The position numbers and the translations under genes were made by a program. Shown here in pieces: positions 31,444-44,156 of a stretch of DNA of 64,000 nt. How positions within the stretch are numbered: the first letter of the stretch is position 1; each line of letters begins with the position of its first letter. Where the stretch lies: the NCBI RefSeq assembly GCF_030295425.1, contig NZ_AP027081.1, positions 4,261,001 through 4,325,000 on the forward strand. Reading direction: 5' to 3'. The notes under the pieces were generated by a model. That model worked only from the letters and a program-made list of their open reading frames with translations, searched no databases and was not told the origin of the DNA. The stretch comes from Mesoterricola sediminis. GTDB lineage: Bacteria; Acidobacteriota; Holophagae; Holophagales; Holophagaceae.

Positions 31444-32586
31444 ATGCCCATGAGCGCTTCCCCCATTCCCTTCAACCGTCCCGTCCCCGCCGGCCGGGAG
31501 GCGGAGCACCTCCAGGCCTGCCTGGCCTCCGGACGCTGGTGCGGCGACGGCCCCTGGACCCGCAAGGCCCAGACGATGCTGGAGGCCTCCCAGGGCTTCC
31601 GCAAGGCCCTCCTCACCCCCTCGTGCACCGCCGCCCTGGAGATGGCCGCCCTCCTCTCCGGGGTCGGTCCCGGCGACGAGGTCATCCTCCCTTCCTACAC
31701 CTTCGTCTCCACGGCCAACGCCTTCGCCCTGCGCGGGGCCAGGCTGGTGTTCGCCGACAGCCTCGCCACCCACCCCAACCTCGACGCCGCGGCCGTGGAA
31801 GCCCTGGTCACCCCCAGGACCCGGGTGATCGTGGCCATGCACTACGGCGGCACCGCCTGTGACATGGACGCCCTGGAGCGGCTCGCGGAGCGCCATGGGC
31901 TCCTTCTCGTCGAGGACGCGGCCCAGTGCATCGGCGCGCGCCACCAGGGCCGACCCCTGGGGAGCATCGGCGCCTTCGGGACCTTCTCCTTCCACGAGAC
32001 CAAGAACGTGGCCTGCGGAGAAGGCGGGGCGCTGGTCGTCAACGACCCCCGCTTCGACCTGAAGGCCGAGATCGTCCGGGAGAAGGGCACGAACCGCGCC
32101 GCCTTCTTCCGGGGGGAAGTCGACAAGTACGGCTGGGTGGACCTCGGATCCAGCTACCTGCCCTCCGAATTCGCCGCCGCCGTCCTGGTGGCCCAGCTCG
32201 AGGAGCTGGACCGGATCAACACCCGGCGCATCGCCCTCTGGGAGCGCTACCGCGAAGCCCTCGCCCCCCTGGCCCGGGCCGGCCGCATCGCCCTGCCCGA
32301 GCTGCCCGAAGGCCACGGCCACAACGGCCACGTCTTCTACGTCGTCACCCCCGACCTCGCAACCCGGACCCGCCTGATGGCCCACCTCAAGGCCGACGGC
32401 ATCAGCGCCGTGTTCCACTACCAGAGCCTCCACAAGAGCCCTTACTTCCAGGACCACCACGACGGCCGCCCCCTGCCCAACTCGGACCGGTTCTCCGATT
32501 GTCTGCTCAGGCTGCCTTTGTTCGCATCCCTGACCGACGAGGAGGTGGACCGGGTGGTGGCGTCGGTCACGGCGCACCTCTCCTGA
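31444..32586 (+). CDS. rffA: dTDP-4-oxo-6-deoxyglucose 4-aminotransferase (RffA/WecE type)
   Basis: PLP enzyme of the DegT/DnrJ/EryC1 family that converts dTDP-4-keto-6-deoxyglucose into a 4-amino-4,6-dideoxy sugar (dTDP-Fuc4N in E. coli). The 380 residues include VILPSYTFVSTANAFALRGA, LLLVEDAAQCIGA, and SFHETKNVACGEGGALVVN, where the Lys of HETKN should bind PLP, as in WecE. ATG codons at 31444 and 31450 are both possible. It heads a cluster of glycosyltransferase and acyl-group genes, and RmlA at the other end supplies dTDP-glucose. The stereochemistry of the product is not readable. Confidence 0.88.
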   Translation: MPMSASPIPFNRPVPAGREAEHLQACLASGRWCGDGPWTRKAQTMLEASQGFRKALLTPSCTAALEMAALLSGVGPGDEVILPSYTFVSTANAFALRGARLVFADSLATHPNLDAAAVEALVTPRTRVIVAMHYGGTACDMDALERLAERHGLLLVEDAAQCIGARHQGRPLGSIGAFGTFSFHETKNVACGEGGALVVNDPRFDLKAEIVREKGTNRAAFFRGEVDKYGWVDLGSSYLPSEFAAAVLVAQLEELDRINTRRIALWERYREALAPLARAGRIALPELPEGHGHNGHVFYVVTPDLATRTRLMAHLKADGISAVFHYQSLHKSPYFQDHHDGRPLPNSDRFSDCLLRLPLFASLTDEEVDRVVASVTAHLS

Positions 32587-32695
32587 ATACACCCGGCGGA
32601 AGGCCGAAGGGAGGCTTGGCCCAGGGGTTCCCCGTGCCGGCAGGACGGTTCTGTCATCATGGAGGGAAACCCGCCACCTTTATCCAAGGCCACGC

Positions 32696-34426
32696 ATGAC
32701 TTCCAGCAGTTCCGACCCCCAAGCCGGCCTCCGTCCGTCCCGCTTCCCCAGGGTCCTTGGGTGGGCGGCCCTGGCCATCCTCGGCCTCGCCTCCCTTCAT
32801 CTCGCCACCCACCGCATCCTGCAGGTGGACGAGGCCCAGCAGGTCAACCAGGCCTGCATCCTCGCCCGGGGTGAGGCCGCCCGGTATTTCGTCTACGCGC
32901 CCTTGCACCATCTGGGCCCCATGGCGTGGATCGCCAAGGCCTGCCACACCTCCAAGTCCCTCTTTCTCCTGAACCGCCTCCTCTACCTGGCGGTGTTCTG
33001 GGTCAACATCGCCCTGATTGGCAGGATCTGCGCGGGCGGGTGGCGGTCCCGGTCCATCCTGGGCTGGACGCTGGGCGCCGCGACGATCGTGCCCCTCTGG
33101 GACTATGGTTTCGAGATCCGCCATGACAACGTTCTGTTGACCGGGCTCCTCCTCGGTTGGCTCTGCCTGATGCGCCGGTGGCGCCACCCTTGGGCGGCCT
33201 TCCTCATGGCTGGCCCCCTGGCCGTTGCCCTCCAATTCCTGTCCTTCAAATCCTTCCTCTACTGGGCCCCCTTTCTCCTGGTCCTGCTGGTGGCGCCCCC
33301 GCCCTCCCTGGCCTCCATCCGGCCCTTGCGGCGTCTGGGCCTCCTGTTGGCGGGGTTGGGGGCGGGTCTGGTCGCCGTCCGGGGCATCTACGCGTTGAGC
33401 GGCGGCTGGCATGATGCGATCCAGGGATTCGGGATGGGGGTGGCCAGTTCCGTGGCCACCACCCGATTCTCGCCGCTGCCGGTGCTCGCTCGGCTTGCCC
33501 GCCAGGCCCCCCTGCTTGTGGCCGGCGGCCTGGGGCTCGCCCTTTCCTGGGCGCTGACCCGGCGGAAGGCCGGCAGCTCCACCTTGACCTGGGTGGCTCC
33601 CTTCCCCGAGTTGGCGCTCCTGGCCTTCCTGCTGGCGGCCTTCGTGGTCAACCCCACGCCCTTCCCCTACAACCTCGTCCTGTTCGCGCCCTTCCTCCTG
33701 GTCGCCAGCGCCGCCCTCCTCCGCGCACCCGAATGGGGCGTCCTGGCCTCCCGCCCCGTCCTGCCGGCGACGCTGGCCGTCCTCGCGGCGTGCCATCTGC
33801 TGCCCTTCCTCCTGCTGACGGCGAGGCACTTCGAGAAGACCCAGGACCGGCAGATCCGCATCCAGGAGGCGGCGGAAGCTCTGACCGATCCTGCGACCGA
33901 CCCCGTGTTCGACGGCACCGGCCTGGTCCCGACCCGTCACCCAGTCGGTTACCAGTGGCTGATTCATTCGATCACCTTGGGCCGGTTCAGGGATGGAACC
34001 TGGCCGTCCATCCTGTCCTTGCTGGAGTCCGATCCTCCCCCCGTCGTCATCCCCAACTACCGACTGGACAGCCTGAGCCAGGACGAGCAGGCCTTCCTAT
34101 CCGCCCACTACATCCCGGTCGCGGACGACCTGCTGGTCGCGGGCCAGGTGCTTCCCGCGGGCGCCACCACCTGGACGTGCCTCCACCCTGGCCGGTATCA
34201 GATCTTCCACGAAATCCAGCCCGGGGGCGTGGCCCAGCCCGGGGTGCTCAGGATCGACGGCAGGGACTATGCCAATCCCGTCATCCTTTACATGGACAAG
34301 GGCGATCACCGGGTGGAGTCCAGGGGGGCCACGAGGAAGGTGGTGGCCTGGATCGGGCCCCGGCTGACCACGATGCCGCAGCTCGAGCTCGGCGACCATC
34401 GCGAACTGTTCATCAACTGGTACTGA
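32696..34426 (+). CDS. Polytopic GT-C-type glycosyltransferase (ArnT/PMT-like)
   Basis: The 576-residue membrane protein has roughly ten or more hydrophobic segments up to residue ~380 and a soluble C-terminal part of ~190 residues. Early HRILQVDEAQQVNQA carries an acidic motif in the first periplasmic loop, as in GT39/ArnT enzymes that use lipid-phosphate sugars, and YGFEIRHDNVL is a second typical loop. It would transfer a sugar from an undecaprenyl-phosphate donor to an acceptor outside the cytoplasmic membrane. The acceptor is unknown. The soluble C-terminal domain, rich in beta strands, is not one I recognise. Confidence 0.7.
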   Translation: MTSSSSDPQAGLRPSRFPRVLGWAALAILGLASLHLATHRILQVDEAQQVNQACILARGEAARYFVYAPLHHLGPMAWIAKACHTSKSLFLLNRLLYLAVFWVNIALIGRICAGGWRSRSILGWTLGAATIVPLWDYGFEIRHDNVLLTGLLLGWLCLMRRWRHPWAAFLMAGPLAVALQFLSFKSFLYWAPFLLVLLVAPPPSLASIRPLRRLGLLLAGLGAGLVAVRGIYALSGGWHDAIQGFGMGVASSVATTRFSPLPVLARLARQAPLLVAGGLGLALSWALTRRKAGSSTLTWVAPFPELALLAFLLAAFVVNPTPFPYNLVLFAPFLLVASAALLRAPEWGVLASRPVLPATLAVLAACHLLPFLLLTARHFEKTQDRQIRIQEAAEALTDPATDPVFDGTGLVPTRHPVGYQWLIHSITLGRFRDGTWPSILSLLESDPPPVVIPNYRLDSLSQDEQAFLSAHYIPVADDLLVAGQVLPAGATTWTCLHPGRYQIFHEIQPGGVAQPGVLRIDGRDYANPVILYMDKGDHRVESRGATRKVVAWIGPRLTTMPQLELGDHRELFINWY

Positions 34427-34440
34427 TGGGCCTTTGAACC

Positions 34441-35424
34441 ATGTCCCCCCGTCCCTTCCTCCTGTCCATCGTCACCCCCGCCTACCGCTGCGAGGCCTGC
34501 ATCGAGGAGCTGTACCGGCGGGTCGTCGAGGCCGTCGGCGGCATCCCGGGCGCCTCCTTGGAACTGATCTTCGTCAACGACGGCAGTCCGGAACGGGACT
34601 GGGAGGTTATCAGCCGACTCGCCGACCTCGACCCGAGGGTCAAGGGGATCAACCTCTCCCGCAATTTCGGCCAGCACCACGCCATCGCCGCGGGCATGGA
34701 CCACGCCCAGGGGGACTGGATCGCCGTGATGGATTGCGACCTCCAGGACCAGCCCGAGGAGATTCCCAGGCTGTTCGAGCATGCCTGGAAGGAGGGCTGG
34801 GACGTGGTCTTCGCGCGCCGAATGGATCGCCAGGACACCTGGCTCAAGGTCTCCCTGTCCCGCTGCTTCAACCGGCTGGTCAACACCCTCAGCACCCTCC
34901 CCATCGACCCCGCCATCAGCAACTTCTCCATCGTCACCCGACAGGTCGCGGACAGCTACCGCCGCATGAGGGAGTGTTCCCGCTCCTACGGCCTGGGCAT
35001 CCTCTGGTGCGGCTACAAGGTGGGCTATGTGCCCGTGCGGCACGGCTCCCGCTTTGCCGGCGCATCGGCCTACAGTTTCGGTCGCTCCCTGCAGCTGGCC
35101 ATGGAGTCCATCACCTCGCTGTCCAACAAGCCGCTCCGGATGGCCATCAACCTGGGCTTCGGGATGGCGACGCTGGCCTTCCTGTACGGGATCTACCTGA
35201 TCATCCGGTACCTGTTCTGGGCCATTCCCGTGGCCGGATGGACCACCATCACCGTGTCCCTCTACTTCCTGTCCGGTGTCATCCTCGTCGTGCTCGGCAT
35301 CCTGGGCCTCTACCTCGGGAAGGTCTTCGACGAAGTCAAGGCCAGGCCCATCTACCTGGTCCGGGAGACCCGGAACGTGGACGGCACCCCGAATTGCGAC
35401 CAAGCCAACGGTCTGGAGGCGTGA
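34441..35424 (+). CDS. Membrane GT2 glycosyltransferase (ArnC/GtrB/DPM1-like)
   Basis: The 327-residue protein has a GT-A domain with LSIVTPAYRCEACIEELYRR, LIFVNDGSPERDW, NLSRNFGQHHAIAAGMDHA, and the metal-binding MDCDLQDQPEEIPRLF. Two hydrophobic hairpins follow (about 235-310). This is the ArnC/GtrB layout, in which a sugar nucleotide is used to load undecaprenyl phosphate on the cytoplasmic face. It lies 14 bases after the GT-C gene and overlaps the adenylation gene region, as part of one operon. Confidence 0.88.
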   Translation: MSPRPFLLSIVTPAYRCEACIEELYRRVVEAVGGIPGASLELIFVNDGSPERDWEVISRLADLDPRVKGINLSRNFGQHHAIAAGMDHAQGDWIAVMDCDLQDQPEEIPRLFEHAWKEGWDVVFARRMDRQDTWLKVSLSRCFNRLVNTLSTLPIDPAISNFSIVTRQVADSYRRMRECSRSYGLGILWCGYKVGYVPVRHGSRFAGASAYSFGRSLQLAMESITSLSNKPLRMAINLGFGMATLAFLYGIYLIIRYLFWAIPVAGWTTITVSLYFLSGVILVVLGILGLYLGKVFDEVKARPIYLVRETRNVDGTPNCDQANGLEA

Positions 35425-35426
35425 CC

Positions 35427-36953
35427 GTGGCCAGGACCCTGCTCGATTTCCTCGCTTCCGCCGCCCGCCCCGAGTGGGCGGACCGAGTCGCCCTTGTGGA
35501 GCCGAAACGCACCTTCACCTTCGCCCAGGTCCTCGCGGCGGCCCACGCCTATGGGGCCGCCATCCGGTCGCGGGGCCTCGACCTAGGGAGGCCGGTGGCG
35601 GTCTTCCTCCCCAAGTGCGCGGAGGTGGTGTTCGCGAACCTGGGCGGCATGCTGGCCGGCGCCATGTTCTCGAACCTGGACGTCAAGTCGCCGAACCGGC
35701 GCATCAAGAACATCCTCGACAACCTGGACCCGGCTCTGGTCGTGACGTCCAGAAGCCTGGCTTCCAGACTCCAGGAAGCCGGGCTGGAGCCCTCGCGCCT
35801 GCTCCTCCTCGAGGACCTGCCCGAAGGGCTGCCCGACGAGCGCCTGCCCCTCCCGGCGCGCGTCGATACGGATCCCGTCTGCATCATCAACACGTCCGGT
35901 TCCACGGGGACGCCGAAAGGCGTCGTCCTCCATCACCGGGGCACCGTCGATTTCATGGATTGGGTCTTCGATACCCTGCCGGTCGACGGCAGCGAGCGCA
36001 TCGGGAGCCTCTCGCCCTTCCACTTCGACATCTACCTCCTCGAGCTCTTCCTGTGCCTGGGCCGGGGGGCCACCCTCGTCCTCATTCCCGAATCCCACGC
36101 GGCCTTCCCCGCCGCCCTGATGGCGTTCCTGCGGGACATGCACATCAGCTTCCTGTTCTGGGTCCCCTCCATCCTGGTGGCGATCGCGAACCAGGGACTG
36201 CTCGAGGAGATTCCGCTTCCCGGCCTCCGGACGGTCTTCTTCGCGGGCGAGGTCTTCCCCACCCGCCATTTCAACCGTTGGCGGAAGGCCCTGCCCGGGG
36301 TCACCTGGGTCAATCTCTACGGCCCCATCGAGATCCACGTGGACTGCACCTACTTCATCGTCGACAGGGCCTTCGCGGACGACGAGCCCCTCCCCATCGG
36401 ATTCCCTTGCCGGAACACGGACATCCTCATCCTTGACGAGGAAGGCCGGTCCTGCCCCGATGGCCTCCAGGGAGAACTGTGCGTGCGGGGTTCCTCCCTG
36501 GCCCATGGGTACTGGAACGACCCGGAGAAGACCGCCAGGGCCTTCGTCCAGAATCCCCTGAACCGGGCCTACCCCGAGACCATCTACCGCACCGGCGACC
36601 TCGTCTGGCGGAATCCGCGCGGGGAGATCATGTTCGTCGGCCGGAAGGATTACCAGATCAAGCACCTGGGGTACCGGATCGAGCTCCCGGAGATCGAGCA
36701 CCAGGCCCTCCAGGTGCCGGGGGTGGCCCAGGCCTGCGTGCTCTACAACCAGGGACGGAAGGAGATCACCTTGTTCTACGAGGCCCAGGATCCTTCGGTG
36801 ACCCCGGCCAGGGTCCGCGCGGCCTTGGCGGAGGCCTTCCCCAAGTACATGGTTCCGACCGCCTACCATCCCATGGACGCCCTCCCCCGCAATCCGAACG
36901 GGAAGATCGACAGGAGCGGACTCGCCGCGGGCCTGGAGGGACCGGCCTCATGA
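35427..36953 (+). CDS. Free-standing amino-acid/acyl adenylation enzyme (DltA-like)
   Basis: ANL-superfamily enzyme that activates a carboxylic acid as an adenylate and loads it on a carrier protein. The 508 residues carry the usual core motifs: TSGSTGTPKG, FHFDIYLLELF (Asp at the position that binds an alpha-amino group in amino-acid-activating members), NLYGPIEIHVDC, YRTGDLV, GRKDYQIKHLGYRIE, and the catalytic Lys in NPNGKIDR. GGAGG lies 7 bases before the GTG at 35427. It is followed at once by an acyltransferase-like gene and an acyl carrier protein, the likely partner. The substrate is not determined. Confidence 0.88.
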   Translation: MARTLLDFLASAARPEWADRVALVEPKRTFTFAQVLAAAHAYGAAIRSRGLDLGRPVAVFLPKCAEVVFANLGGMLAGAMFSNLDVKSPNRRIKNILDNLDPALVVTSRSLASRLQEAGLEPSRLLLLEDLPEGLPDERLPLPARVDTDPVCIINTSGSTGTPKGVVLHHRGTVDFMDWVFDTLPVDGSERIGSLSPFHFDIYLLELFLCLGRGATLVLIPESHAAFPAALMAFLRDMHISFLFWVPSILVAIANQGLLEEIPLPGLRTVFFAGEVFPTRHFNRWRKALPGVTWVNLYGPIEIHVDCTYFIVDRAFADDEPLPIGFPCRNTDILILDEEGRSCPDGLQGELCVRGSSLAHGYWNDPEKTARAFVQNPLNRAYPETIYRTGDLVWRNPRGEIMFVGRKDYQIKHLGYRIELPEIEHQALQVPGVAQACVLYNQGRKEITLFYEAQDPSVTPARVRAALAEAFPKYMVPTAYHPMDALPRNPNGKIDRSGLAAGLEGPAS

Positions 36954-37783
36954 TCCCGGTTCCGTCCCCGGAGGTCCTGGTGGAGGCTCTGGCCTCCACA
37001 CGGGCGGCGGCGGCGGCCTACCACACCAACCTGTTCCTGAACCTGGACCAGATCGCCGGCTGGTTCGCGGAAGGTGGGCTGGCCTGGATGCGTGGCCCGG
37101 GGGCCGTCCTGGTCAGGCAACGGGAGGCCGGACTCGACCGCCTGTTCCACGCCGCCACCTGCCCCGGGGCCCTGGCCGAAGCCTTGGCCCGCCTTCCCGA
37201 GCCGCCCAGAACCCAGCCCTGGGTGTCCGACCTCGTCGGGCGGCCCGAGGCCCTGACGGACGTAGCGGGGATCTACGCGGCCTGCGGGTTCCGTCACCAC
37301 CGTTCCCTCCTGCGCATGATCCGCGTGGGCACCCCTCTCCCGGCACCGCCGGACCCCTCGGTCTGCGACGAGGCCCTTCCTGGCCAGGCCGACGCCGTCG
37401 TGGCCATGCTCCGCCGGCTCCTCGATCCCCTTGCGGAGCGCATCCCATCCCCCCGGGAGGTGGCCCGGTGGGCGGCGGACGGCGAGATGCTCACGGTCCG
37501 GCGCGGGGACACCCTGGCGGGAATGCTCGCCTACCACGTGCAGGGCCGGTCCGCCCATCTGCGTTACTGGCACGTGGATCCGCGGTTCCGGGGCGGGGGC
37601 GCGGGCTCGGCCCTGCTGCGGACGTTCCTGGACAGGACCCGGGGCTGCACCCGCCAGACCTTGTGGGTCCTGGCCCACAATGCCGACAGCATCGCCAAGT
37701 ACGCGCATTACGGGTTCCACATGGACCCGGCCGTCGACATGATCATGGTGAAAGGGGCCGCCGGCCCGGGAGGCATCGCATGA
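36950..37783 (+). CDS. GNAT-family acyltransferase
   Basis: The 277-residue protein overlaps the adenylation gene by 4 bases. Its C-terminal half has a GNAT acyl-CoA/acyl-ACP binding core: LRYWHVDPRFRGGGAGSALL (Q/RxxGxG/A loop) and a final WVLAHNADSIAKYAHYGF. The N-terminal half is unlike common GNATs, perhaps a degenerate second GNAT domain. With carrier-protein genes on both sides it may move an acyl or aminoacyl group from carrier protein to the amino-sugar. Substrate is inference. Confidence 0.7.
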   Translation: MIPVPSPEVLVEALASTRAAAAAYHTNLFLNLDQIAGWFAEGGLAWMRGPGAVLVRQREAGLDRLFHAATCPGALAEALARLPEPPRTQPWVSDLVGRPEALTDVAGIYAACGFRHHRSLLRMIRVGTPLPAPPDPSVCDEALPGQADAVVAMLRRLLDPLAERIPSPREVARWAADGEMLTVRRGDTLAGMLAYHVQGRSAHLRYWHVDPRFRGGGAGSALLRTFLDRTRGCTRQTLWVLAHNADSIAKYAHYGFHMDPAVDMIMVKGAAGPGGIA

Positions 37784-38010
37784 GCAGAGTCCTGGACATC
37801 CTGAAGGACATCCGGCCCGAATTCGACTTCTCCACCTCCACGGACTTCATCGAAGACGGCATGCTCGATTCCATGGACGTCGTCACCCTGGTCTCCGAAC
37901 TGGACAAGGCCTTCGGCATTTCCATCGCGGGAATCGACATCCTTCCGGAACATTTCTCGAGCCTCGAGGGCATCCATGCCCTCCTCGAGCGCTACGGGGT
38001 CAAGCCATGA
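37780..38010 (+). CDS. Acyl carrier protein 1 of the cluster
   Basis: The 76-residue protein has the four-helix carrier fold; the phosphopantetheine serine is in DGMLDSMDVVTLVSELDKAF (LDSMD). It overlaps its neighbours by 4 bases on both sides (ATGA). A DltC-like role, accepting the product of the adenylation enzyme, is likely from position. It is distinct from the housekeeping fatty-acid AcpP. Confidence 0.85.
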   Translation: MSRVLDILKDIRPEFDFSTSTDFIEDGMLDSMDVVTLVSELDKAFGISIAGIDILPEHFSSLEGIHALLERYGVKP

Positions 38011-39074
38011 TGCTGGCTTTCGAGGATTGCGCCATCACCGGCCTGCTGACGGTCCTGCCCGAACATGAACGGACCTTCCTGGAAGAAATGGAAGCCTACA
38101 AGGCTCCGCTCAAGCGTTCCCTCAAGCTGAAAGAGGTCATGGGATACGACCGCCACCGCATCGTGGACGGCCCGGTCTGCGCCTCCGACCTGGTCTGCCG
38201 GGGCCTCGAGCACCTGTTCGAGCGGGGCCTGCTCGAACGGGACGGCTTCGACGCGCTCATCCTGGTGACCCAGTCGCCGGACCACTTCATCCCGCCGACC
38301 AGCAATGTGGTCCAGGGGCGCCTCGGCCTCGGCCACGATGTCCTCTGCCTGGACATCAACCAGGGATGCGCGGGCTTCCTGATCGGCCTGATGCAGGGCT
38401 TCCTCCTGCTCGCCCAGCCTTCCATCCGGAAAGTCGTCGTCGCCAATGCGGACCTGCTCAGCCGGAAGGTCTCGAAGCAGGACCGCAACAGCTGGCCGCT
38501 CATCGGCGATGCCGCCTCCATCACCGTGCTCGAGCGGCGCCCGGGGGCGCCCAGGATCCACCTGAGCCTGAAGATGGACGGCACGCGCCGGGAGGCCTTG
38601 ATGATCCCGGCAGGGGGGTTCCGCCAGCCGTCCAGTCCCGGGACCGCCGTGATGGCCGAGGATCCGGAAGGCAACCTCCGGGCTCCGGACAACCTGGTGA
38701 TGGACGGCTCCGCCGTCTTCAACTTCGTGCAGGTCGAGGTCCCGCCCCTGGTGGAGGACCTGCTGGCCCGCGCGGGCAGGGGCCTGGACACCATCGACAC
38801 CTTCCTCTTCCATCAGCCGAACCGGTTCATGCTCGAGAAGCTCGCCGACCGGATGGGAGTCCCCCGGGAGCGGATGCCCAACAACATCGTCGAGCACTAC
38901 GGCAACTCCAGCGGGGTGACCATTCCGCTGGCCCTCGCCCACAACCACCGCGCCGAGGTGCTGTCCGGGACCCTGCGCACCTGCTTCGCGGGGTTCGGCG
39001 TAGGCCTGACCTGGGGCGCCATGCTGGCCGACGTAGGCCCGCTCAGGTTCTGTGAGATGATCGATTTCAAATGA
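38007..39074 (+). CDS. 3-oxoacyl-ACP synthase III (KASIII/FabH-like)
   Basis: The 355-residue thiolase-fold enzyme has the complete KASIII triad: Cys in DINQGCAGFLIGLMQG, His in FLFHQPNRF and Asn in EHYGNSSGVTIPLAL. It should condense a primer acyl group with malonyl-ACP. N-terminal residues differ from housekeeping FabH, and the gene lies between two carrier-protein genes, so it probably makes a short specialised acyl group. It overlaps ACP 1 by 4 bases. Confidence 0.88.
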   Translation: MMLAFEDCAITGLLTVLPEHERTFLEEMEAYKAPLKRSLKLKEVMGYDRHRIVDGPVCASDLVCRGLEHLFERGLLERDGFDALILVTQSPDHFIPPTSNVVQGRLGLGHDVLCLDINQGCAGFLIGLMQGFLLLAQPSIRKVVVANADLLSRKVSKQDRNSWPLIGDAASITVLERRPGAPRIHLSLKMDGTRREALMIPAGGFRQPSSPGTAVMAEDPEGNLRAPDNLVMDGSAVFNFVQVEVPPLVEDLLARAGRGLDTIDTFLFHQPNRFMLEKLADRMGVPRERMPNNIVEHYGNSSGVTIPLALAHNHRAEVLSGTLRTCFAGFGVGLTWGAMLADVGPLRFCEMIDFK

Positions 39075-39085
39075 CGGGAGGCACC

Positions 39086-39307
39086 ATGGATGAGTTTCTG
39101 AACCGCCTGAAGGAGACCCTCGACGTCGACGAACTCGGGCCGGACACCGTCCTGGAGGACCTGGAGGAGTGGGATTCGCTGGCCGCCCTTTCCGTGATCG
39201 CCCTTCTCAGCAGCCAGTACCGGGTGAACCTTCCCGCCGCCGACCTCAAGGGCGGAAAGACCGTTCAGGCGCTTTTCGATGGCGTGATGGCCCGGAAGGG
39301 CAACTGA
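39086..39307 (+). CDS. Acyl carrier protein 2 of the cluster
   Basis: The 73-residue carrier protein (ATG 39086, GGGAGG four bases upstream) has its phosphopantetheine serine in LEEWDSLAALSVIALL. It differs clearly from ACP 1 (WDSLA against LDSMD), so the two may hold different intermediates, for example a starter and an extender chain. A start at 39071 would overlap the KASIII stop codon but has a poorer ribosome site. Confidence 0.85.
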   Translation: MDEFLNRLKETLDVDELGPDTVLEDLEEWDSLAALSVIALLSSQYRVNLPAADLKGGKTVQALFDGVMARKGN

Positions 39308-39310
39308 TCC

Positions 39311-40060
39311 ATGGCCCAGGCCGCCGGATCCATCCTCGTCACGGGCGCCTCCTCCGGCATCGGGGCCGCCGTGGCCCTCCGGCTGTCGGAATCGTCCCCG
39401 CTCGTACTCGGGGGACGGGACCTCCCGCGACTCGAGCGGACCGCGGCCCAGTGCCGCCGTTCCCACCCCGCCCGTTCCTGGGCCTACGACCTCCAGGACC
39501 TCGCAGGGCTTCCCGAGGCCGTGGCGGCCCTGGCCCGGGAAGGCCCCATCTCCGCCTTCGTCCACTGCGCCGGGTCCGTGAACCCCCTTCCGCTGCGCAA
39601 CGTCACTCCCGACCAGCTGCTGGAGCCCCTGACCCTCCATGTCCTTGCCGCCGCGGAGATCGCCAGGCTGCTGTCGCTCAAGCGCATCAATGGATCCAGC
39701 CTCACGTCCATCGTGCTCATCGGCAGCATCTGGGGCCCGTTCGCCGCGAAGGGCCATACCGCGTATGTCGTCAGCAAGGCCGCCCTGGAGGGTCTGACCC
39801 GGGGCCTGGCCGTGGACCTGGCCCCCCGGGTGACGGTGAACGCCGTCCTGCCCGGCGCCGTGGACACCCCCATGGCCGGGCGGGCCCTGGAGGACCCCCA
39901 GGTCCGGACCCGCCTGGAGACGGATTATCCGCTCGGGATCGGCACCCCCGAGGCCATCGCCGGAGCCGTGGCCTTCCTGCTCTCCCGTGACGCGGGCTGG
40001 ATCACCGGCCAGTCGCTCACGGTGGACGGCGGGCGCACCATCCATCTCCCCCTCAAATGA
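39311..40060 (+). CDS. SDR-family reductase (3-oxoacyl-ACP reductase-like)
   Basis: The 249-residue short-chain dehydrogenase has the cofactor motif LVTGASSGIGAAVAL, active-site Ser in IGSIWGPF and the catalytic pair in AYVVSKAALEGL (Tyr-x3-Lys), then GWITGQSLTVDGG at the C-terminus. After the KASIII and ACP genes, a FabG-like reduction of a 3-oxoacyl-ACP to a 3-hydroxyacyl group is the likely job. A sugar substrate cannot be excluded. Confidence 0.82.
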   Translation: MAQAAGSILVTGASSGIGAAVALRLSESSPLVLGGRDLPRLERTAAQCRRSHPARSWAYDLQDLAGLPEAVAALAREGPISAFVHCAGSVNPLPLRNVTPDQLLEPLTLHVLAAAEIARLLSLKRINGSSLTSIVLIGSIWGPFAAKGHTAYVVSKAALEGLTRGLAVDLAPRVTVNAVLPGAVDTPMAGRALEDPQVRTRLETDYPLGIGTPEAIAGAVAFLLSRDAGWITGQSLTVDGGRTIHLPLK

Positions 40061-40072
40061 TCCGGGGCGCGC

Positions 40073-40915
40073 ATGCATGACCTGAACCTGTTCCTCGCCT
40101 CCGATGGATCGTGGATCACCTCGTCGGACCTGCGCCGGGCCCTGGAAGCCTCCGGGGCGGGCGGCTGTCCCGTGCTCTACATCCACACCGGCATGACCTT
40201 CGGCCTGCCCAACCTGGAGCTGCCGAGAACGCGGCTGCTGGACCACCTGCACCAGCTCCTCCAGGAACTCGGCGCGGAAACCCTGTGCCTGCCTGCCTTC
40301 ACCTTCAGCTTCTGCGCCGGCGAGGCCTTCGACGTGGCCCGGTCCCGCTCCCGCATGGGGGCCCTGAACGAGCACCTCCGGCTGCTGCCGGGCGCCGCGC
40401 GGTCCGTGGATCCCCTCATGTCCAACGTGGTCCTGGGCCCCGGACGGGACCTGATCCTGGAGGTGGGGCGCCATTCCGTGGGGGCGGGGTCGACATTCGA
40501 CCGCCTTCACGCGAAGGGGAAGGACGTCAAATTCCTGTTTTTCGGCACCACCCCGCGGGAATGTTTCACCTACACCCATTACGTCGAGGAACGCCTGGAT
40601 GTCCCGTACCGGTACCGCCGGCCATTCAAGGGACGCATCCAGGAGGGGGACCGCTCCCGGGAGGAGACCTACACCCTGTTCGTCCGGTACGCGGGCGTGG
40701 TGCCGGCCGACGACGGGCTCCTGCAGTCCACCCTCCTGGACCGCGGGCACCTGAGGTGGGTGCCGTGCGGCGACAGCAGCATCTCCTGTGTCGGGGAGCC
40801 CGAGGCCTGGGAGACGATCCGGGAGCACCTGACTGCCGACGTCCACGCCTACATCGCCCACGATCCGATGGACCGGGACACCACCTTCCCCGTGGCCAGG
40901 ATGGTGGCCCTGTGA
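40073..40915 (+). CDS. AAC(3)-fold N-acyltransferase
   Basis: The 280-residue protein matches the AAC(3) family weakly but along its length: CPVLYIHTGMTFGLP, LGAETLCLPAFTFSFCAG, SVDPLMSNVVLG and FLFFGTTPRECFTYTHYVEE (the family's histidine region). In sugar and natural-product clusters such proteins acylate amines other than aminoglycosides. Here it is a candidate for acylating the amino-sugar. It is only distantly similar to the AAC(3) protein at 20861-21718. Confidence 0.7.
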   Translation: MHDLNLFLASDGSWITSSDLRRALEASGAGGCPVLYIHTGMTFGLPNLELPRTRLLDHLHQLLQELGAETLCLPAFTFSFCAGEAFDVARSRSRMGALNEHLRLLPGAARSVDPLMSNVVLGPGRDLILEVGRHSVGAGSTFDRLHAKGKDVKFLFFGTTPRECFTYTHYVEERLDVPYRYRRPFKGRIQEGDRSREETYTLFVRYAGVVPADDGLLQSTLLDRGHLRWVPCGDSSISCVGEPEAWETIREHLTADVHAYIAHDPMDRDTTFPVARMVAL

Positions 40916-40946
40916 ACCCTCCCCTTCTCCTCCACTGGGCGGACGC

Positions 40947-41681
40947 ATGCTGAAAGCGGTCCGGATTCCCATCGACTCGGACGTCCTGGGACGGAACGTC
41001 GTCGCCCTGACGATCCCCGAGCCCGCCCCCGGCTTCCGGGCCTTCGAGGCGGACTATGTCGCCCAGTTCGACCCCGGCTACGCCTATGCCAAGGTCCCCC
41101 TGGCCTCGATTCCGCTCATCCACGGCCTGGAATCGGAGGGGTTCCAGTGGATCGAGTGCCAGATCCAATCCTCCGTCAGGCTCCGCCGCCCCTTCGACGT
41201 GTCCGCGTTTCCCGGCTACGCCTTCGAACAGGTTGAGCGGGAGGAGGATCTCGCGGAGGTCCTGGACATCGCAGCTTCGACCTTCACCCACGACCGGTGG
41301 TCCATCGATCCCGGCCTGCCGCCGGGACTCGCCGGGCTGCGCTATCGCGCCTACGTCCGGAACTCGCTCCAGGACCCCAGGGAGCGGGTCTACCGCCTGA
41401 GGGACCTGGCCACGGGGCGGGTGCTGGCCTTCAAGACCCATCGCCTCCAGGAGGACGGCAGCGTCCTGTTCCTGCTGGGCGGCGTCCATCCCGAGGTGAA
41501 GGCCATGGGCCTCGGCCTGCTCAACGAGTACCTGGAGTTCAACGTGCTCTTCGAGGCGGGTGTCAGGCGTGGCATCACGCACATCTCCGCGGCCAACCAC
41601 GCTGTGTTCAATCTGGAAATCGGCCGCCTGGGCTTCCGGGTCCTCCAGACGTCCGCGGTGCTGAGAAAACTCTATCCCTAG
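40947..41681 (+). CDS. WecD/RffC-like GNAT acyltransferase for a dTDP-amino-sugar
   Basis: The 244-residue protein has the layout of WecD, the dTDP-Fuc4N acetyltransferase: an N-terminal part with VPLASIPLIHGLESEGFQWI and IECQIQSSVRLRRPF, and a C-terminal GNAT core with LFLLGGVHPEVKAMGLGLLN and HISAANHAVFNLEIGRLGF. WecD normally partners with RffA/WecE, whose homologue starts this cluster. The donor could be acetyl-CoA or an acyl-ACP made by the neighbouring genes. Confidence 0.72.
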   Translation: MLKAVRIPIDSDVLGRNVVALTIPEPAPGFRAFEADYVAQFDPGYAYAKVPLASIPLIHGLESEGFQWIECQIQSSVRLRRPFDVSAFPGYAFEQVEREEDLAEVLDIAASTFTHDRWSIDPGLPPGLAGLRYRAYVRNSLQDPRERVYRLRDLATGRVLAFKTHRLQEDGSVLFLLGGVHPEVKAMGLGLLNEYLEFNVLFEAGVRRGITHISAANHAVFNLEIGRLGFRVLQTSAVLRKLYP

Positions 41682-41693
41682 GCCCTCCCTGCC

Positions 41694-42044
41694 GTGCACT
41701 GGCTGCTGACCTCCCTCGCCCTCCAGCTCCTGGTTCTCGTCCTGGCCAAGATGGCTGCGCTCCGGATGCGTCCCTTCACCCTGGACAACCTGCTCCACAA
41801 CCCGCCCCTCCTGGCCTCGGTCCTCTGCCTGGCCTGCCAGGCCCTGATCTGGCCGCTGGTCCTCCGCCGATACCCCCTCTTCTGGTCCTACCTCGCGACC
41901 ACTTTGGTTTTCGTGGCCATCCCGGCCGTGAGCCATTGGGTGTTCGGCGAACCCCTATCGGCCGGGAACCTGGCGGGCGCGATCACCATCGCCGCGGGCC
42001 TCCTGGTCCTGCTCTCGGACCGCCGGGAGGCCCGCCATGATTGA
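41694..42044 (+). CDS. Small multidrug-resistance-like flippase subunit 1 (ArnE/ArnF-like)
   Basis: The 116-residue protein has four hydrophobic helices and a GTG start. The size and its pairing with a second 112-residue EamA/SMR protein (overlap 8 bases) match the ArnE/ArnF pair that flips undecaprenyl-phosphate-Ara4N. The C-terminal FGEPLSAGNLAGAITIAAG is typical of the EamA half-repeat. The role as flippase is inferred from context. Confidence 0.72.
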   Translation: MHWLLTSLALQLLVLVLAKMAALRMRPFTLDNLLHNPPLLASVLCLACQALIWPLVLRRYPLFWSYLATTLVFVAIPAVSHWVFGEPLSAGNLAGAITIAAGLLVLLSDRREARHD

Positions 42045-42375
42045 GCGGCTTCTCTATGCCTATCTGGCCGTCCTGCTGACCGCGGTCGCCCAGGTCCTCC
42101 TGAAGCGCAACGCGACCCGGACGCGCGGAGCTTCCTGGCTGATGCTCTACGGGTCCCCGGCGGCCCTCGCGGCCTGGACGGCCATGGCGGCGGCCTTCCT
42201 CGTGAACCTCTACGCGTACGCCACCCTGCCCCTGCGGTTCGCGGCCGTGGTGCAGCCGTTCAACTACGTGCTGGTGGGGGCCTTCTCCTGGGTCTTCCTC
42301 GGCGAGCGGCTGAGCCGCAGACAGTGGGCGGGAGCCGCCATCATCCTCGTCGGGGTCGCCCTGTTCAACCTGTAG
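42037..42375 (+). CDS. Small multidrug-resistance-like flippase subunit 2 (ArnE/ArnF-like)
   Basis: The 112-residue protein has four helices: LLTAVAQVLLKRNATRTRG, LYAYATLPLRFAAVVQPFNY and a closing FLGERLSRRQWAGAAIILVG, an EamA signature. GGGAGG lies six bases before the ATG. It probably forms a heterodimer with the previous gene product to move a lipid-linked sugar across the membrane. It ends immediately next to the convergent epimerase gene. Confidence 0.75.
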   Translation: MIERLLYAYLAVLLTAVAQVLLKRNATRTRGASWLMLYGSPAALAAWTAMAAAFLVNLYAYATLPLRFAAVVQPFNYVLVGAFSWVFLGERLSRRQWAGAAIILVGVALFNL

Positions 42376-43407
42376 TCAGGAAATGTCCAGGATCCCGCCA
42401 TAGCGTTCGACGTCACGGATGATCCGGTGCCATTTCTCCAGTTCCCGGTACCAGGTCAGGGTGATGGTCTGATCCCCCACCTGGACCCGTCCCTCCTCCA
42501 GGGCCCGCCAGATCTCCTGGGCGCCTTCCGCCGCCGTCCACTGGGCCTGCCACCCCAGGGTCCGCTCGATCTTCTTGAAGTCCACGCGATAGGAGCGGTG
42601 ATCGGGGTCCCCGTACCAGGCGATGGTGACGGGCTTCGGCATGACCCCCACCATCTCCTCGGCCAGCGGCCCCAGCTGGTAGTTGTTCCGGTCGGAGCCC
42701 ACGTTGAAGATCTGGCCGTTGATCCGGGCCGGGTCGGCCTCCAGGAGGAGGCACATCACATCCGTGGTGTCCTGGACGTGGACCATCGGGCGCCACTGCG
42801 TCCCATCCCGCATGAGGGGGATGACGCCGTTCTTCCAGGCACCCAGGGTCATGCCGTTGATGGCGAGGTCGAAGCGCATGCGCGGAGCGTGCCCATAGAC
42901 CGTCGCCTGGCGGATCACGACAGCCGTGAAGGCGTCGTCCGCCAGGGGCAGGACGGCCTGTTCGGCGAGCTCGTTGGCCCGGGCATAGGTGGTGAGCGGA
43001 TTCGTCGGTGCCGATTCGTCCACGGCCCGGTCCCCCCCCTGGAACCCGTAGATGCTGCAAGAGGAGGGGAGGATGTAGCGCTTCACCCCCATCCGCTTGG
43101 CCAATCGCGCCGTCGCCGCGCGGGCCCGGTGATTGATGGCCGCGGTCGCGTCCTGGTACAGCTCTCCGCTCGGGTCGTTGGAGATGGCCACCAGGTCCAC
43201 CACGCCGTCGATCCCTTCGAGGTGCGAGGCCTGGATCCGGCGGGCGTCCTCGATGACGCAGGTGAGGCCGGGCGCGTCCTGAAGCTTGTCCCGCCCGAAG
43301 AAGAACCGGTCCAGGGCCCGGACCTCGTAGCCCTTGCCCAGCAACTTGGGCACCAGCACGCTGCCGATGTAACCGCCCGCGCCGGTGACGAGGATCCGTC
43401 CCTTCAT
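42376..43407 (-). CDS. NAD-dependent epimerase/dehydratase with unusual YxxxN site
   Basis: The 343-residue extended SDR has the nucleotide motif ILVTGAGGYIGSVLVPKLL and SSCSIYG, the usual active-site serine region. The catalytic Tyr-x3-Lys is Tyr141-Ala-Arg-Ala-Asn145, so the lysine is missing at its expected place. The C-terminal part is typical of nucleotide-sugar enzymes (VGSDRNNYQLGPLAEEMVG). It overlaps rmlA by 4 bases and so probably acts on a dTDP-sugar. It may have another lysine in its place, a changed reaction, or be inactive; the reaction is not known. Confidence 0.75.
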   Translation of the reverse strand: MKGRILVTGAGGYIGSVLVPKLLGKGYEVRALDRFFFGRDKLQDAPGLTCVIEDARRIQASHLEGIDGVVDLVAISNDPSGELYQDATAAINHRARAATARLAKRMGVKRYILPSSCSIYGFQGGDRAVDESAPTNPLTTYARANELAEQAVLPLADDAFTAVVIRQATVYGHAPRMRFDLAINGMTLGAWKNGVIPLMRDGTQWRPMVHVQDTTDVMCLLLEADPARINGQIFNVGSDRNNYQLGPLAEEMVGVMPKPVTIAWYGDPDHRSYRVDFKKIERTLGWQAQWTAAEGAQEIWRALEEGRVQVGDQTITLTWYRELEKWHRIIRDVERYGGILDIS

Positions 43408-44156
43408 CGCGTCTTCCCTTCCAGGGCCAGGCCCGTGATCCGGTTCCCGCAGGCCAGCATCATCGCGTTGGCCTCGGCGAGGCTTTCGAACGTCCCTGCG
43501 TCGGTCCAGCCCCCCTCGACGATGTCGTAGGCCAGTTCCCCCAGCTGGATGTACCGGTTGTTGACGGAGGTGATCTCGTACTCCCCTCGGGGGGAGAGGC
43601 CCATGGTCCGGAGGATGTCCCACACCTGGGGGTCATAGCAGTAGGCGCCCACGACCGCGTAGGGGCTCTTGGGGCGCTCGGGCTTCTCTTCGATCTCGAT
43701 GACCTGCTTTTCGTCCAGGGCGGCCACCCCGTACCGGGAGGGCTGATCCACCGACTTGAGGAGCACCCGGGCGCCCCGCCCCTGGGCCAGGAAGCGGTCC
43801 ACGAACCCGGCGATGGAATGGGTGAAGATGTTGTCGCCCAGGAGGACGGTGATCGGCCGGTCCCCCGCGAAGTCCTCGCCCAGGGCCAGGGCGTCCGCGA
43901 TGCCCAGGGCCTCCTCCTGGACGCGGTAGGTGAACCGGGCGCCGAAGTCCTTGCCGCTTCCGAGGAGCCGAACGATCTCCCCCATGTGTTCGGTGCTCGT
44001 GATGATGAGGATGTCCTGGATGCCCGCCCCCACAAGCTGGCGAACAGGATGGAAGATCATGGGCTCCAGCCCCACGGGGAGCAGGTGCTTATTGGTTACC
44101 TTGGTGAGGGGGTGGAGGCGGGTGCCCTTCCCCCCTGCCAGGACAATGCCTTTCAT
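43404..44156 (-). CDS. rmlA: Glucose-1-phosphate thymidylyltransferase
   Basis: Makes dTDP-glucose from dTTP and glucose-1-phosphate. The 250 residues from ATG 44156 begin MKGIVLAGGKGTRLHPLTKV, with LLPVGLEPMIFHPV, VLLGDNIFTH, VIEIEEKPERPKS and GGWTDAGTFESLAEAN, all of the RmlA type, in the shorter 240-250-residue form. A longer reading adds 36 unlike residues. With the 4,6-dehydratase RmlB supplied from elsewhere, its product feeds RffA. Transcription diverges from pilA. Confidence 0.92.
   Translation of the reverse strand: MKGIVLAGGKGTRLHPLTKVTNKHLLPVGLEPMIFHPVRQLVGAGIQDILIITSTEHMGEIVRLLGSGKDFGARFTYRVQEEALGIADALALGEDFAGDRPITVLLGDNIFTHSIAGFVDRFLAQGRGARVLLKSVDQPSRYGVAALDEKQVIEIEEKPERPKSPYAVVGAYCYDPQVWDILRTMGLSPRGEYEITSVNNRYIQLGELAYDIVEGGWTDAGTFESLAEANAMMLACGNRITGLALEGKTR

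What the first reader, a model, noticed from the sequence alone, without database searches (positions are those of the whole stretch)
32696..42375. Arn-like export arm: lipid-carrier loading, flipping and outside transfer
A GT2 enzyme of ArnC/GtrB layout, a pair of overlapping SMR/EamA proteins like ArnE/ArnF, and a GT-C protein like ArnT are encoded in one operon. These are the three steps of a lipid-phosphate-sugar pathway. The early Arn genes (ArnA, ArnB) are replaced by RffA and acylation genes, so this could be a new branch that decorates LPS, a glycan or a protein.
Basis: partly seen in the sequence, partly recalled or inferred. Interest (0 to 1): 0.55.

Follow-up and report, generated by a model that had tools for sequence, protein, structure and literature searches.

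The report
Pilin-linked sugar-decoration gene cassette
A bacterial gene cassette that appears to build an unusual acylated amino sugar, load it on a membrane lipid, flip it outward and most likely attach it to the hair-like type IV pilus, at a chromosomal spot where relatives carry other sugar-decorating gene sets.

Summary
32696-42375 encodes a GT-C protein, a GtrB/ArnC-type GT2 and an overlapping pair of ArnE/F-like SMR proteins, in one run of genes with an apparent N-acyl-amino-sugar assembly line. The Arn-like logic (load a lipid phosphate, flip, transfer outside) is supported; Arn membership is not (no Arn model reaches its cut-off). The GT-C protein matches no Pfam, NCBIfam or PDB sequence, but its predicted fold aligns best with ArnT (Z 19.1) and other GT-C proteins. 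The new result is the likely target. In 12 of 14 Holophagaceae loci this GT-C lies 0.2-12.6 kb from the same kind of type IV pilin gene, in 11 of the 12 with an LtaS/YejM-like membrane enzyme beside the pilin; the other two loci are on short contigs. The stretch between a conserved TPR gene and the pilin carries different GT2/flippase/GT-C sets in relatives. With an otherwise nearly identical sugar cassette, two congeners have an LPG_synthase_TM 'flippase-like' protein where the window has the SMR pair; other loci have GtrA. Best reading: a three-component polyprenyl-phosphate-sugar system that O-glycosylates type IV pilin, TfpW-like in role. New variant of a known kind; sugar, acyl group and pilin transfer are inferred.

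The parts
31444..32586 (+). WecE/RffA-type PLP sugar aminotransferase (4-amino sugar donor step)
   Evidence: NCBIfam PRK11706 519 bits (cut-off 375) and TIGR02379 463 bits (cut-off 434.85); ArnB model 236 bits, cut-off 631, not met
32696..34426 (+). GT-C glycosyltransferase with invariant QVDE, RHD and NPTPFPYN motifs; C-terminal beta domain possibly like CBM6/CBM35
   Evidence: no Pfam, NCBIfam or PDB-sequence hit; AlphaFold model pLDDT 67.9, pTM 0.65; VIA-align Z 19.1 to ArnT 5f15, 422 aligned, 4.9 A; motifs in 8 of 8 aligned relatives
34441..35424 (+). GT2 polyprenyl-phosphate sugar synthase, GtrB/ArnC/PgfS type
   Evidence: Pfam PF00535 3.4e-29; PDB GtrB 5ekp 3e-58, ArnC 4e-44; NCBIfam PgfS 9.9e-68, ArnC 2.2e-48, both below cut-off
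35421..36953 (+). stand-alone amino-acid/acyl adenylation enzyme (NRPS A-domain/DltA type)
   Evidence: TIGR01733 351 bits over cut-off 317; PDB NRPS A-domains
36950..37783 (+). GNAT acyltransferase 1
   Evidence: PF00583 1.1e-11; start
37780..38010 (+). acyl carrier protein 1
   Evidence: PF00550 2.2e-5; weak DltC hit 1.3e-7 below cut-off
38007..39074 (+). beta-ketoacyl-ACP synthase III-type enzyme
   Evidence: PF08541 9.2e-23, PF08545 2.7e-12
39086..39307 (+). acyl carrier protein 2
   Evidence: PF00550 4.4e-7
39311..40060 (+). SDR, possible ketoacyl reductase
   Evidence: PF13561 6.8e-38; FabG-type and other SDR models, none of the 25 shown at cut-off
40073..40915 (+). AAC(3)-fold N-acyltransferase, candidate amino-sugar N-acyltransferase
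   Evidence: PF02522 3.5e-21; AAC(3) equivalog cut-off not met
40947..41681 (+). GNAT acyltransferase 2, weakly WecD/RffC-like
   Evidence: TIGR02382 1.1e-4, below cut-off
41694..42044 (+). SMR/EamA-type small membrane protein 1 (ArnE/F-like flippase subunit, proposed)
   Evidence: NCBIfam ArnE 8.8e-4, ArnF 1.6e-3; no Pfam hit; no acidic residue in TM1; counterpart in G. paludis
42037..42375 (+). SMR/EamA-type small membrane protein 2 (ArnE/F-like flippase subunit, proposed)
   Evidence: EamA 3.7e-10; ArnE 1.1e-6; counterpart in G. paludis 48%
42376..43407 (-). NAD-dependent sugar epimerase/dehydratase
   Evidence: PF01370 3.3e-35; counterpart in the G. paludis cassette
43404..44171 (-). RmlA-like sugar-1-phosphate nucleotidylyltransferase
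   Evidence: PF00483 1.5e-55; TIGR01207 235.7 bits, cut-off 360.65 not met
44497..44985 (+). type IV prepilin, proposed acceptor
   Evidence: PF07963 5.1e-10; TIGR02532 over cut-off; same kind of pilin in 12 of 14 Holophagaceae GT-C loci
45068..47029 (+). membrane-anchored alkaline-phosphatase-superfamily protein (LtaS/YejM-like), proposed second pilin-modifying enzyme
   Evidence: model pLDDT 72.9; Z 21.1 LtaP, 20.6 PbgA/YejM; prepilin within 1.5 kb in 28 of 30 loci

Best explanation
This is a three-component polyprenyl-phosphate-sugar glycosylation system aimed at the type IV pilus. In the cytoplasm the aminotransferase makes a nucleotide-linked 4-amino sugar. The adenylation enzyme, ACPs, KASIII and reductase build a short acyl group, and the AAC(3)-type and/or GNAT enzymes put it on the amino group. 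The GT2 moves the finished sugar to polyprenyl phosphate, the SMR pair flips it, and the GT-C, with its active site outside, transfers it to Ser/Thr of the pilin encoded downstream. Shown here: gene content, GT2 family, GT-C fold (predicted model), SMR type, and the conserved link with pilin in different gene contexts. Inferred: the chemistry of sugar and acyl group, flipping, and transfer to pilin.
For: GT2 is GtrB/ArnC-like over nearly full length. GT-C model: the first 45 of the 50 listed VIA-align rows are GT-C enzymes or GT-C-fold subunits of OST and GPI-transamidase complexes (chain identities partly recalled), led by ArnT bound to undecaprenyl phosphate, then Pmt4. SMR TM1 carries no acidic residue, like ArnE/ArnF and unlike EmrE. 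The same GT-C family lies near the same kind of pilin in 12 of 14 Holophagaceae loci, at 230-349 bp in 7 of them; in five of those seven (L014, L015, L016, L026, L029) T4P ATPase and PilC-type proteins lie in the same held stretch (profile-tested for PilB, PilT and PilC of L016, PilT-type of L029 and PilC-type of L014 and L026, the rest by resemblance). All 11 GT-C-positive genomes of 61 family members also have the LtaS-like gene (26 of 61); hypergeometric P 1.8e-5, relatedness not corrected. Two congeners have counterparts of 10 cassette genes plus GT-C, pilin and LtaS-like gene, but an LPG_synthase_TM protein (Pfam over cut-off; TIGR00374 below its cut-off) and no SMR2 match; L016 and L030 have GtrA near GT2 and GT-C. 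In other genomes the interval from TPR to pilin can hold PMT_2-type proteins with GT2, GtrA or LPG_synthase_TM.
Against: No direct evidence of pilin modification. Linkage could partly be inherited synteny, since TPR, fabI and pilin are neighbours across the family; one genome (L129) has nothing in the interval, and in G001 and G004 the GT-C sits between bcp and fabI, outside the interval. Loci are related, so 12 of 14 is not 12 independent events. None of the five loci outside Holophagaceae (L032-L035, L038) shows a prepilin in the held flanks, most of them short. GT-C Foldseek E-values are weak (best 0.029) and the model is of medium confidence. No RmlB over cut-off was found.
Confidence: 0.6

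Rival explanations
1. The same export arm decorates LPS, O-antigen or another surface polysaccharide, as Arn and Gtr systems do; the pilin is only a neighbour.
For: ArnT is the best fold match. GtrB/GtrA/Gtr three-component systems modify O-antigen (PMC11127046, abstract and passages). The GT-C C-terminal domain resembles CBM6/CBM35 at Z 5.6-6.7, a level that may mean only a common arrangement, but which could fit glycan binding. Relatives in MAGs outside the family lack a visible pilin.
Against: No O-antigen ligase or polymerase was hit among the cassette proteins (not searched for in the genome). GT-C lies 230-349 bp from pilin in 7 loci, five of them with T4P assembly-type proteins in the same stretch. 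PMT_2-type proteins occupy the pilin-side interval in other genomes. The genome carries another, PMT_2-type ArnT-like gene beside a UDP-4-keto-pentose synthase.
Confidence: 0.22
2. A general protein O-glycosylation system of PMT/Pgf type: the GT-C modifies several secreted proteins, pilin among them.
For: Pmt4 and Pmt1-Pmt2 are among the best fold matches. The closest NCBIfam model of the GT2 is PgfS, whose operon modifies Cnm and WapA in Streptococcus mutans and includes the PMT-2-type membrane protein PgfM1 (PMC5856776, passages).
Against: A general system has no evident need to stay with the pilin gene from locus to locus; 50 of the 61 Holophagaceae genomes searched lack a match of this GT-C.
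Confidence: 0.12
3. The SMR pair is an ordinary small-molecule exporter and a chance neighbour of the cassette.
For: SMR2 gives a sub-threshold Multi_Drug_Res hit, 0.0036, and weak Qac/MdtI hits.
Against: No acidic TM1 residue; ArnE is the best NCBIfam hit of both; overlapping gene pair retained in G. paludis with the same kind of cassette; congeners with the same cassette but no SMR2 match have a flippase-like protein instead.
Confidence: 0.08

Closest known systems
TfpW pilin glycosyltransferase of Pseudomonas aeruginosa/paraeruginosa group IV (PMC11841053 and PMC12369383, passages; the original 2008 paper was not held)
   Same: GT-C protein encoded with the pilin gene that glycosylates that pilin (its polyprenyl-linked donor is recalled, not seen in a call)
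   Different: TfpW uses D-arabinofuranose; here the donor looks like an N-acyl 4-amino sugar with synthesis, loading and flipping genes at the pilin locus. Sequence kinship with TfpW was not tested.
ArnA-F/ArnT system of E. coli (L022)
   Same: lipid-phosphate loading by an ArnC-like GT2, adjoining small SMR pair, ArnT-like GT-C fold; a 4-amino sugar N-modified before loading (formylation in Arn, as the gene names say)
   Different: no ArnA or ArnD in the cassette; ArnB, ArnC, ArnE and ArnF cut-offs not met; GT-C without Pfam hit; pilin rather than lipid A as likely acceptor
Gtr-type and pentofuranose three-component systems, GT136 (PMC11127046, abstract and passages)
   Same: loader, flippase, GT-C; different flippase families reported or proposed (GtrA, SMR, MATE); the GT136 founder also has a C-terminal CBM
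   Different: those act on O-antigen or wall glycans; here the linkage is to pilin, and LPG_synthase_TM proteins also occur in the flippase place
Pseudomonas flagellin viosamine island (vioA, vioS, vioR, acp, vioB, vioM; PMC3927599, passages)
   Same: amino-sugar aminotransferase plus KASIII, ketoreductase, ACP and acyltransferase making an N-(3-hydroxyacyl) amino sugar
   Different: there VioT adds the sugar from dTDP to a rhamnosyl glycan of flagellin; here there is an added adenylation enzyme and second ACP, and proposed export on lipid phosphate
Neisseria pilin phospho-form modification (PMC4010543, start of abstract in listing; that PptA is the enzyme and of this superfamily is recalled)
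   Same: membrane alkaline-phosphatase-superfamily enzyme acting on pilin that is also glycosylated
   Different: the protein here is closest by fold to LtaP/LtaS and YejM and has no Pfam or NCBIfam hit; its substrate is unknown

Membership tests
Arn (Ara4N-lipid A) pathway | ArnB, ArnC, ArnE, ArnF models reach curated cut-offs | tested here: not met
   ArnB 236/631, ArnC 164.9/529, ArnE 28.9 and 19.4/92, ArnF 18.9/99 bits
Arn (Ara4N-lipid A) pathway | ArnA and ArnD encoded in the cluster | tested here: not met
   all 15 cluster proteins from aminotransferase to nucleotidylyltransferase were scanned: no ArnD listed, ArnA only 24.6/777 bits (epimerase); lists are capped at 25 families. An ArnA-C-like UDP-4-keto-pentose synthase (525.8/294 bits) lies elsewhere, L050 14211-15263
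GT-C superfamily, ArnT/PMT-like fold | fold of lipid-phosphate-sugar GT-C enzymes | tested here: met
   VIA-align Z 19.1 ArnT, 18.6 Pmt4, first 45 rows of GT-C fold; Foldseek alone E 0.029 at best; medium-confidence model
GT-C superfamily, ArnT/PMT-like fold | acidic pair after TM1 | tested here: met
   D45-E46 in QVDE invariant in 8 of 8; that this is the outside catalytic site is inferred from ArnT/PMT and recall
GtrB/ArnC polyprenyl-phosphate glycosyltransferases (GT2) | full-length similarity to structures with GT2 domain plus TM helices | tested here: met
   residues 7-311 to GtrB 5ekp, 3e-58; two hydrophobic segments
Three-component glycosylation systems | loader, flippase and GT-C in one cluster | tested here: met
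   the flippase role of the SMR pair is inferred
Drug-exporting SMR (EmrE/Qac) | membrane-embedded Glu14 in TM1 | tested here: not met
   no D/E in TM1 of SMR1 or SMR2 (SMR2 has only E3 before it); EmrE E14 present in the same alignment; that Glu14 is essential is recalled
ArnE/ArnF Und-P-sugar flippase | transport of Und-P-sugar as a heterodimer | not testable with these tools
Pilin-specific GT-C (TfpW type) | gene with the pilin gene | tested here: met
   12 of 14 Holophagaceae loci, 230-12631 bp; in the window 10071 bp away, at the other end of the cassette
Pilin-specific GT-C (TfpW type) | sequence homology to TfpW | not tested
Pilin-specific GT-C (TfpW type) | glycan on pilin depends on the enzyme | not testable with these tools
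   mass spectrometry needed
dTDP-amino-sugar route (WecE/RffA) | aminotransferase at cut-off and dTDP-glucose 4,6-dehydratase in the genome | tested here: inconclusive
   aminotransferase passes; 11 TIGR01181 matches in the genome, none over cut-off, best 149.6 of 365.1 bits
Membrane alkaline-phosphatase superfamily transferases (LtaS/EptA type) | TM anchor plus AP-superfamily domain with Thr and metal-ligand residues | tested here: met
   fold Z 21.1 LtaP; D208, T237, D456, H457 invariant in 8 of 8; their catalytic roles are assigned from recall of LtaS/EptA; sulfatases score nearly as high, so the reaction is open

The most novel reading that the evidence does not exclude
The interval between a TPR gene and the pilin gene in Holophagaceae is a pilus 'serotype' locus: whole Und-P-sugar cassettes (GT2, one of at least three unrelated flippase families, and different GT-C families) are exchanged while the pilin, an LtaS/YejM-like second pilin modifier and the housekeeping flanks stay. 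LPG_synthase_TM/TIGR00374-type proteins would then be functional substitutes for ArnE/F and GtrA as lipid-phosphate-sugar flippases, and pili would carry both a tailor-made acylated amino sugar and a phospho-type substituent.
Probability: 0.4. Interest if true: 0.68.

Novelty: new variant of a known kind. Interest (0 to 1): 0.55.

Why it matters
To my knowledge (recall) pilin glycosylation from a lipid-linked single sugar is known in few bacteria; TfpO and TfpW are reported to protect against pilus-specific phages (PMC11841053, passages). If this reading is right, Acidobacteriota have a self-contained pilin-sugar cassette, and a set of natural swaps (SMR pair, GtrA, LPG_synthase_TM protein) that would let the open question of which proteins flip polyprenyl-phosphate sugars be tested by exchange in one background. 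A GT-C family without a Pfam or NCBIfam hit would also gain a substrate.

Tried and rejected
Arn membership: rejected on cut-offs. Sequence search of GT-C against PDB, single sequence and profile: no hit. Profile search of the LtaS-like protein against PDB: only marginal hits, best 0.019, before the fold search showed its superfamily. Foldseek on the GT-C model gave no match under E 0.001; the GT-C conclusion rests on VIA-align plus motifs. Families not listed there are not excluded.

Donor route: RmlB not found over cut-off; the epimerase at 42376-43407 is not the TIGR01181 equivalog (42 bits). The genome does hold a UDP-4-keto-pentose synthase over cut-off, so a 4-amino-pentose donor, closer to Arn, is not excluded. 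The A-domain has Asp in the FDIYLLE stretch aligned with FDISVAE of LgrA, which by recall suggests an alpha-amino acid, but no specificity was predicted.

Controls and dropped rows: 19 random 20-kb stretches from four related genomes, scanned by tblastn: 17 without a pilin hit. L063 has pilin and the LtaS-like gene because it happens to overlap the G004 pilin locus itself, and L066 has one distant prepilin (27%). A motif search on called ORFs of the 19 printed none, missing those two, so it is an insensitive control. The five non-Holophagaceae loci are told apart and not in the 14. A weak distant GT-C match in G005 (6.5e-18; it overlaps the 557-aa protein of L135 beside the pilin) counts among the 11 genomes but not among the 14 loci. 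LtaS-like gene: one search gave 31 matches, 30 with a locus; in 28 of 30 a prepilin hit lies within the held flank, but in 4 of the 28 (L098, L108, L112, L117) it is only the first 33-36 residues; L113 (1.7-kb fragment) and L116 (distant paralogue) have none. Literature: a search for Holophagaceae/Geothrix with pilin glycosylation listed no paper on it (12 of 363 listed).

Mended on checking: L018 flippase-like protein, PilB/PilT/PilC names, the ArnT/ArnA-like pair, the ACPs and the SDR were profile-tested afterwards; confidence lowered from 0.62 to 0.60 because of the UDP-4-keto-pentose synthase and the G001/G004 position of the GT-C.

Full report
Setting. The window lies in a 4.52-Mb single-contig genome. 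Genomes of the same family carry Holophagaceae titles, and one is Geothrix paludis, so the family is Holophagaceae (Acidobacteriota); the genus was not named by any search.

What is there. From 31444 to 42375 on the + strand runs a tight series of 13 genes, overlapping or within 31 bases of each other except for 109 bases after the first: aminotransferase, GT-C, GT2, adenylation enzyme, GNAT1, ACP1, KASIII, ACP2, SDR, AAC(3)-type acyltransferase, GNAT2, SMR1, SMR2. It abuts two convergent genes, an epimerase and an RmlA-like nucleotidylyltransferase. Beyond these, on the + strand, come a type IV pilin and a large membrane protein.

The loader. The GT2 aligns over residues 7-311 with GtrB (3e-58) and with ArnC (4e-44); its best NCBIfam model is PgfS, below cut-off. 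This is the family that puts single sugars on polyprenyl phosphate.

The transferase. The GT-C protein matches nothing in Pfam, NCBIfam or PDB sequences. An AlphaFold2 model on eight relatives has pLDDT 67.9 and pTM 0.65. Foldseek's matches are weak (best an OST complex chain, 0.029; PimE, 0.12). VIA-align places ArnT first (Z 19.1, 422 aligned, 4.9 A), then Pmt4 and GPI mannosyltransferase I (18.6) and ALG12 (18.1). The first 45 of 50 rows are GT-C enzymes or GT-C-fold subunits (STT3 in OST or translocon complexes, PIG-U in GPI transamidase; chain identities partly recalled). Residues 479-559 resemble CBM6/CBM35 modules at Z 5.6-6.7, a level that the tool warns may mean only a common arrangement. 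D45-E46 after TM1, R142-H143-D144 and NPTPFPYN 319-326 are invariant in 8 of 8 relatives.

The flippase. SMR1 and SMR2 have ArnE as best NCBIfam hit, below cut-off. Neither has an acidic residue in TM1, as in ArnE and ArnF and unlike EmrE with E14. The strongest evidence is a natural replacement. G001 and G004, of the same genus, have counterparts (one-way best matches) of ten cassette genes (aminotransferase, GT2, adenylation enzyme, GNAT1, ACP1, KASIII, ACP2, SDR, AAC3, GNAT2), of GT-C, of the pilin and of the LtaS-like gene, but no SMR2 match in the genome. Instead they have a protein of Pfam LPG_synthase_TM, over cut-off in both (74.8 and 69.4 bits against 33.4; TIGR00374 'flippase-like' hit below its cut-off in both), and a methyltransferase-like gene the window lacks. 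L020 and L014 also have LPG_synthase_TM beside a GT2, while L016 and L030 have GtrA. Geothrix paludis keeps the SMR pair, on the other strand. In the literature, three-component systems use GtrA, SMR or MATE proteins at this step, without direct proof of flipping (PMC11127046, abstract and passages).

The acceptor. The GT-C family was found in 11 of 61 Holophagaceae genomes, one a weak match, in 9 of 396 across the phylum, three of them weak partial matches outside the family, and in a few other MAGs. After merging duplicates there are 14 Holophagaceae loci: window, L014, L015, L016, L017, L018, L019, L020, L026, L027, L028, L029, L030, L031. Twelve have the same kind of pilin (MKKQSGFTLIELLLVLAIIGIISAIAIPAL and close variants) at 230-12631 bp; in L028 only the first 19 residues fit on the contig. 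The two without, L019 and L020, are on contigs of 5.2 and 12.1 kb. In L014, L015, L016, L026 and L029 type IV pilus assembly proteins lie in the same stretch: in L016 PilB passes TIGR02538 (754/675.65), PilT passes TIGR01420 (494.4/319.1), and the PilC-type protein has T2SSF with PilC models below cut-off; in L029 a T2SSE and in L014 and L026 a T2SSF protein were tested, the others are named by resemblance. Of 19 random stretches, 17 had no pilin. None of the five loci outside Holophagaceae showed a prepilin in the held DNA.

The interval. Where both ends were seen, the order is fabI, a TPR gene, variable genes, pilin, LtaS-like gene, and in several a second prepilin and pilC/T/B. In G001 and G004 the GT-C itself lies between bcp and fabI, outside this interval, while the rest of the cassette is in it. 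Seven other genomes with pilin and LtaS-like gene were inspected. L129 has nothing between TPR and pilin. L130 has a PMT_2 protein just over cut-off with GtrA and GT2-like genes. L135 (G005) has a protein that is a distant match of this GT-C family and a sub-threshold PMT_2, with LPG_synthase_TM and GT2. L133 has a PMT_2 protein with TPR repeats beside a Glycos_transf_2 protein. L128 has a GT2 and a large membrane protein without a Pfam hit, and L131 a multi-TM protein without a Pfam hit. L132 was cut before the TPR gene. So the interval behaves as an exchange site for glycosylation sets. That weakens the argument from linkage alone (synteny), but strengthens the argument from content.

The second enzyme. 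The 653-aa protein after the pilin has no Pfam or NCBIfam hit. Its model (pLDDT 72.9) is an alkaline-phosphatase-superfamily domain on a membrane anchor: LtaP Z 21.1, PbgA/YejM 20.6, LtaS 19.5, with soluble sulfatases close behind (up to 20.8) (Foldseek E down to 1.6e-9). D208, T237, D456 and H457 are invariant in 8 of 8. It occurs in 26 of 61 family genomes; a prepilin lies within 1.5 kb in 28 of 30 loci, in 4 of them seen only by its N-terminal stretch. All 11 GT-C-positive genomes have it (P 1.8e-5, relatedness not corrected). In Neisseria, pilin carries phosphoethanolamine or phosphocholine beside a glycan (abstracts in listing); a phospho-type transfer to pilin is my guess here.

The sugar. 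The aminotransferase passes the WecE-type NCBIfam cut-offs. KASIII, reductase, ACP and acyltransferase recall the viosamine island that makes an N-(3-hydroxyacyl) viosamine for flagellin (PMC3927599, passages); the adenylation enzyme (amino-acid type) is extra. No RmlB passes its cut-off in the genome, whereas a UDP-4-keto-pentose synthase does (L050, beside a PMT_2/ArnT-like gene that scores 179.6 of 567 bits on the ArnT model), so the nucleotide sugar is open: a 4-amino-dideoxyhexose or a 4-amino-pentose.

Verdict. It works like an Arn or Gtr export arm, is not a member of Arn, and most likely serves the type IV pilus. New variant of a known kind, with an exchange site that would deserve a family-wide study.

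Noticed in passing
window 45068-47029; relatives in L088-L117: 653-aa membrane protein without Pfam or NCBIfam hit, of LtaS/YejM-like predicted fold, with a prepilin within 1.5 kb in 28 of 30 loci.
   Followed up: yes
L050 12538-15263 (G000:C1:3324557-3327282): Separate pair in the same genome: a 558-aa PMT_2/ArnT-like protein (ArnT model 179.6 of 567 bits) next to a UDP-4-keto-pentose/UDP-xylose synthase over cut-off.
   Followed up: partly
L017 15127-16035, L018 4443-5378, L020 1658-2620, L014 2-565, L135 7170-8147: LPG_synthase_TM proteins in the flippase place of GT2/GT-C clusters: candidate polyprenyl-phosphate-sugar flippases.
   Followed up: partly
L128-L135, interval between the TPR gene and the pilin: Different glycosylation gene sets between the same flanks; empty in L129.
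   Followed up: partly
L033 1189-2931 and 9911-11695: Verrucomicrobiia MAG with two copies of this GT-C family on one contig stretch, the first beside a GT2 homologue; no pilin seen.
   Followed up: no
L067 4737-14671 (G000:C1 about 2.545-2.555 Mb): Cluster of prepilin-like proteins around a 1585-aa protein, arranged like minor pilins with PilY1 (reading from recall, not tested).
   Followed up: no
L021 8290-9252 (G000:C1:4038299-4039249): Second GtrB/ArnC-like GT2 in the genome, 32% identical, without an obvious flippase or GT-C beside it.
   Followed up: no
window 32696-34426, residues 479-559 of the product: C-terminal domain of the GT-C model resembles CBM6/CBM35 modules, Z 5.6-6.7; the GT136 founder also carries a CBM.
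   Followed up: partly
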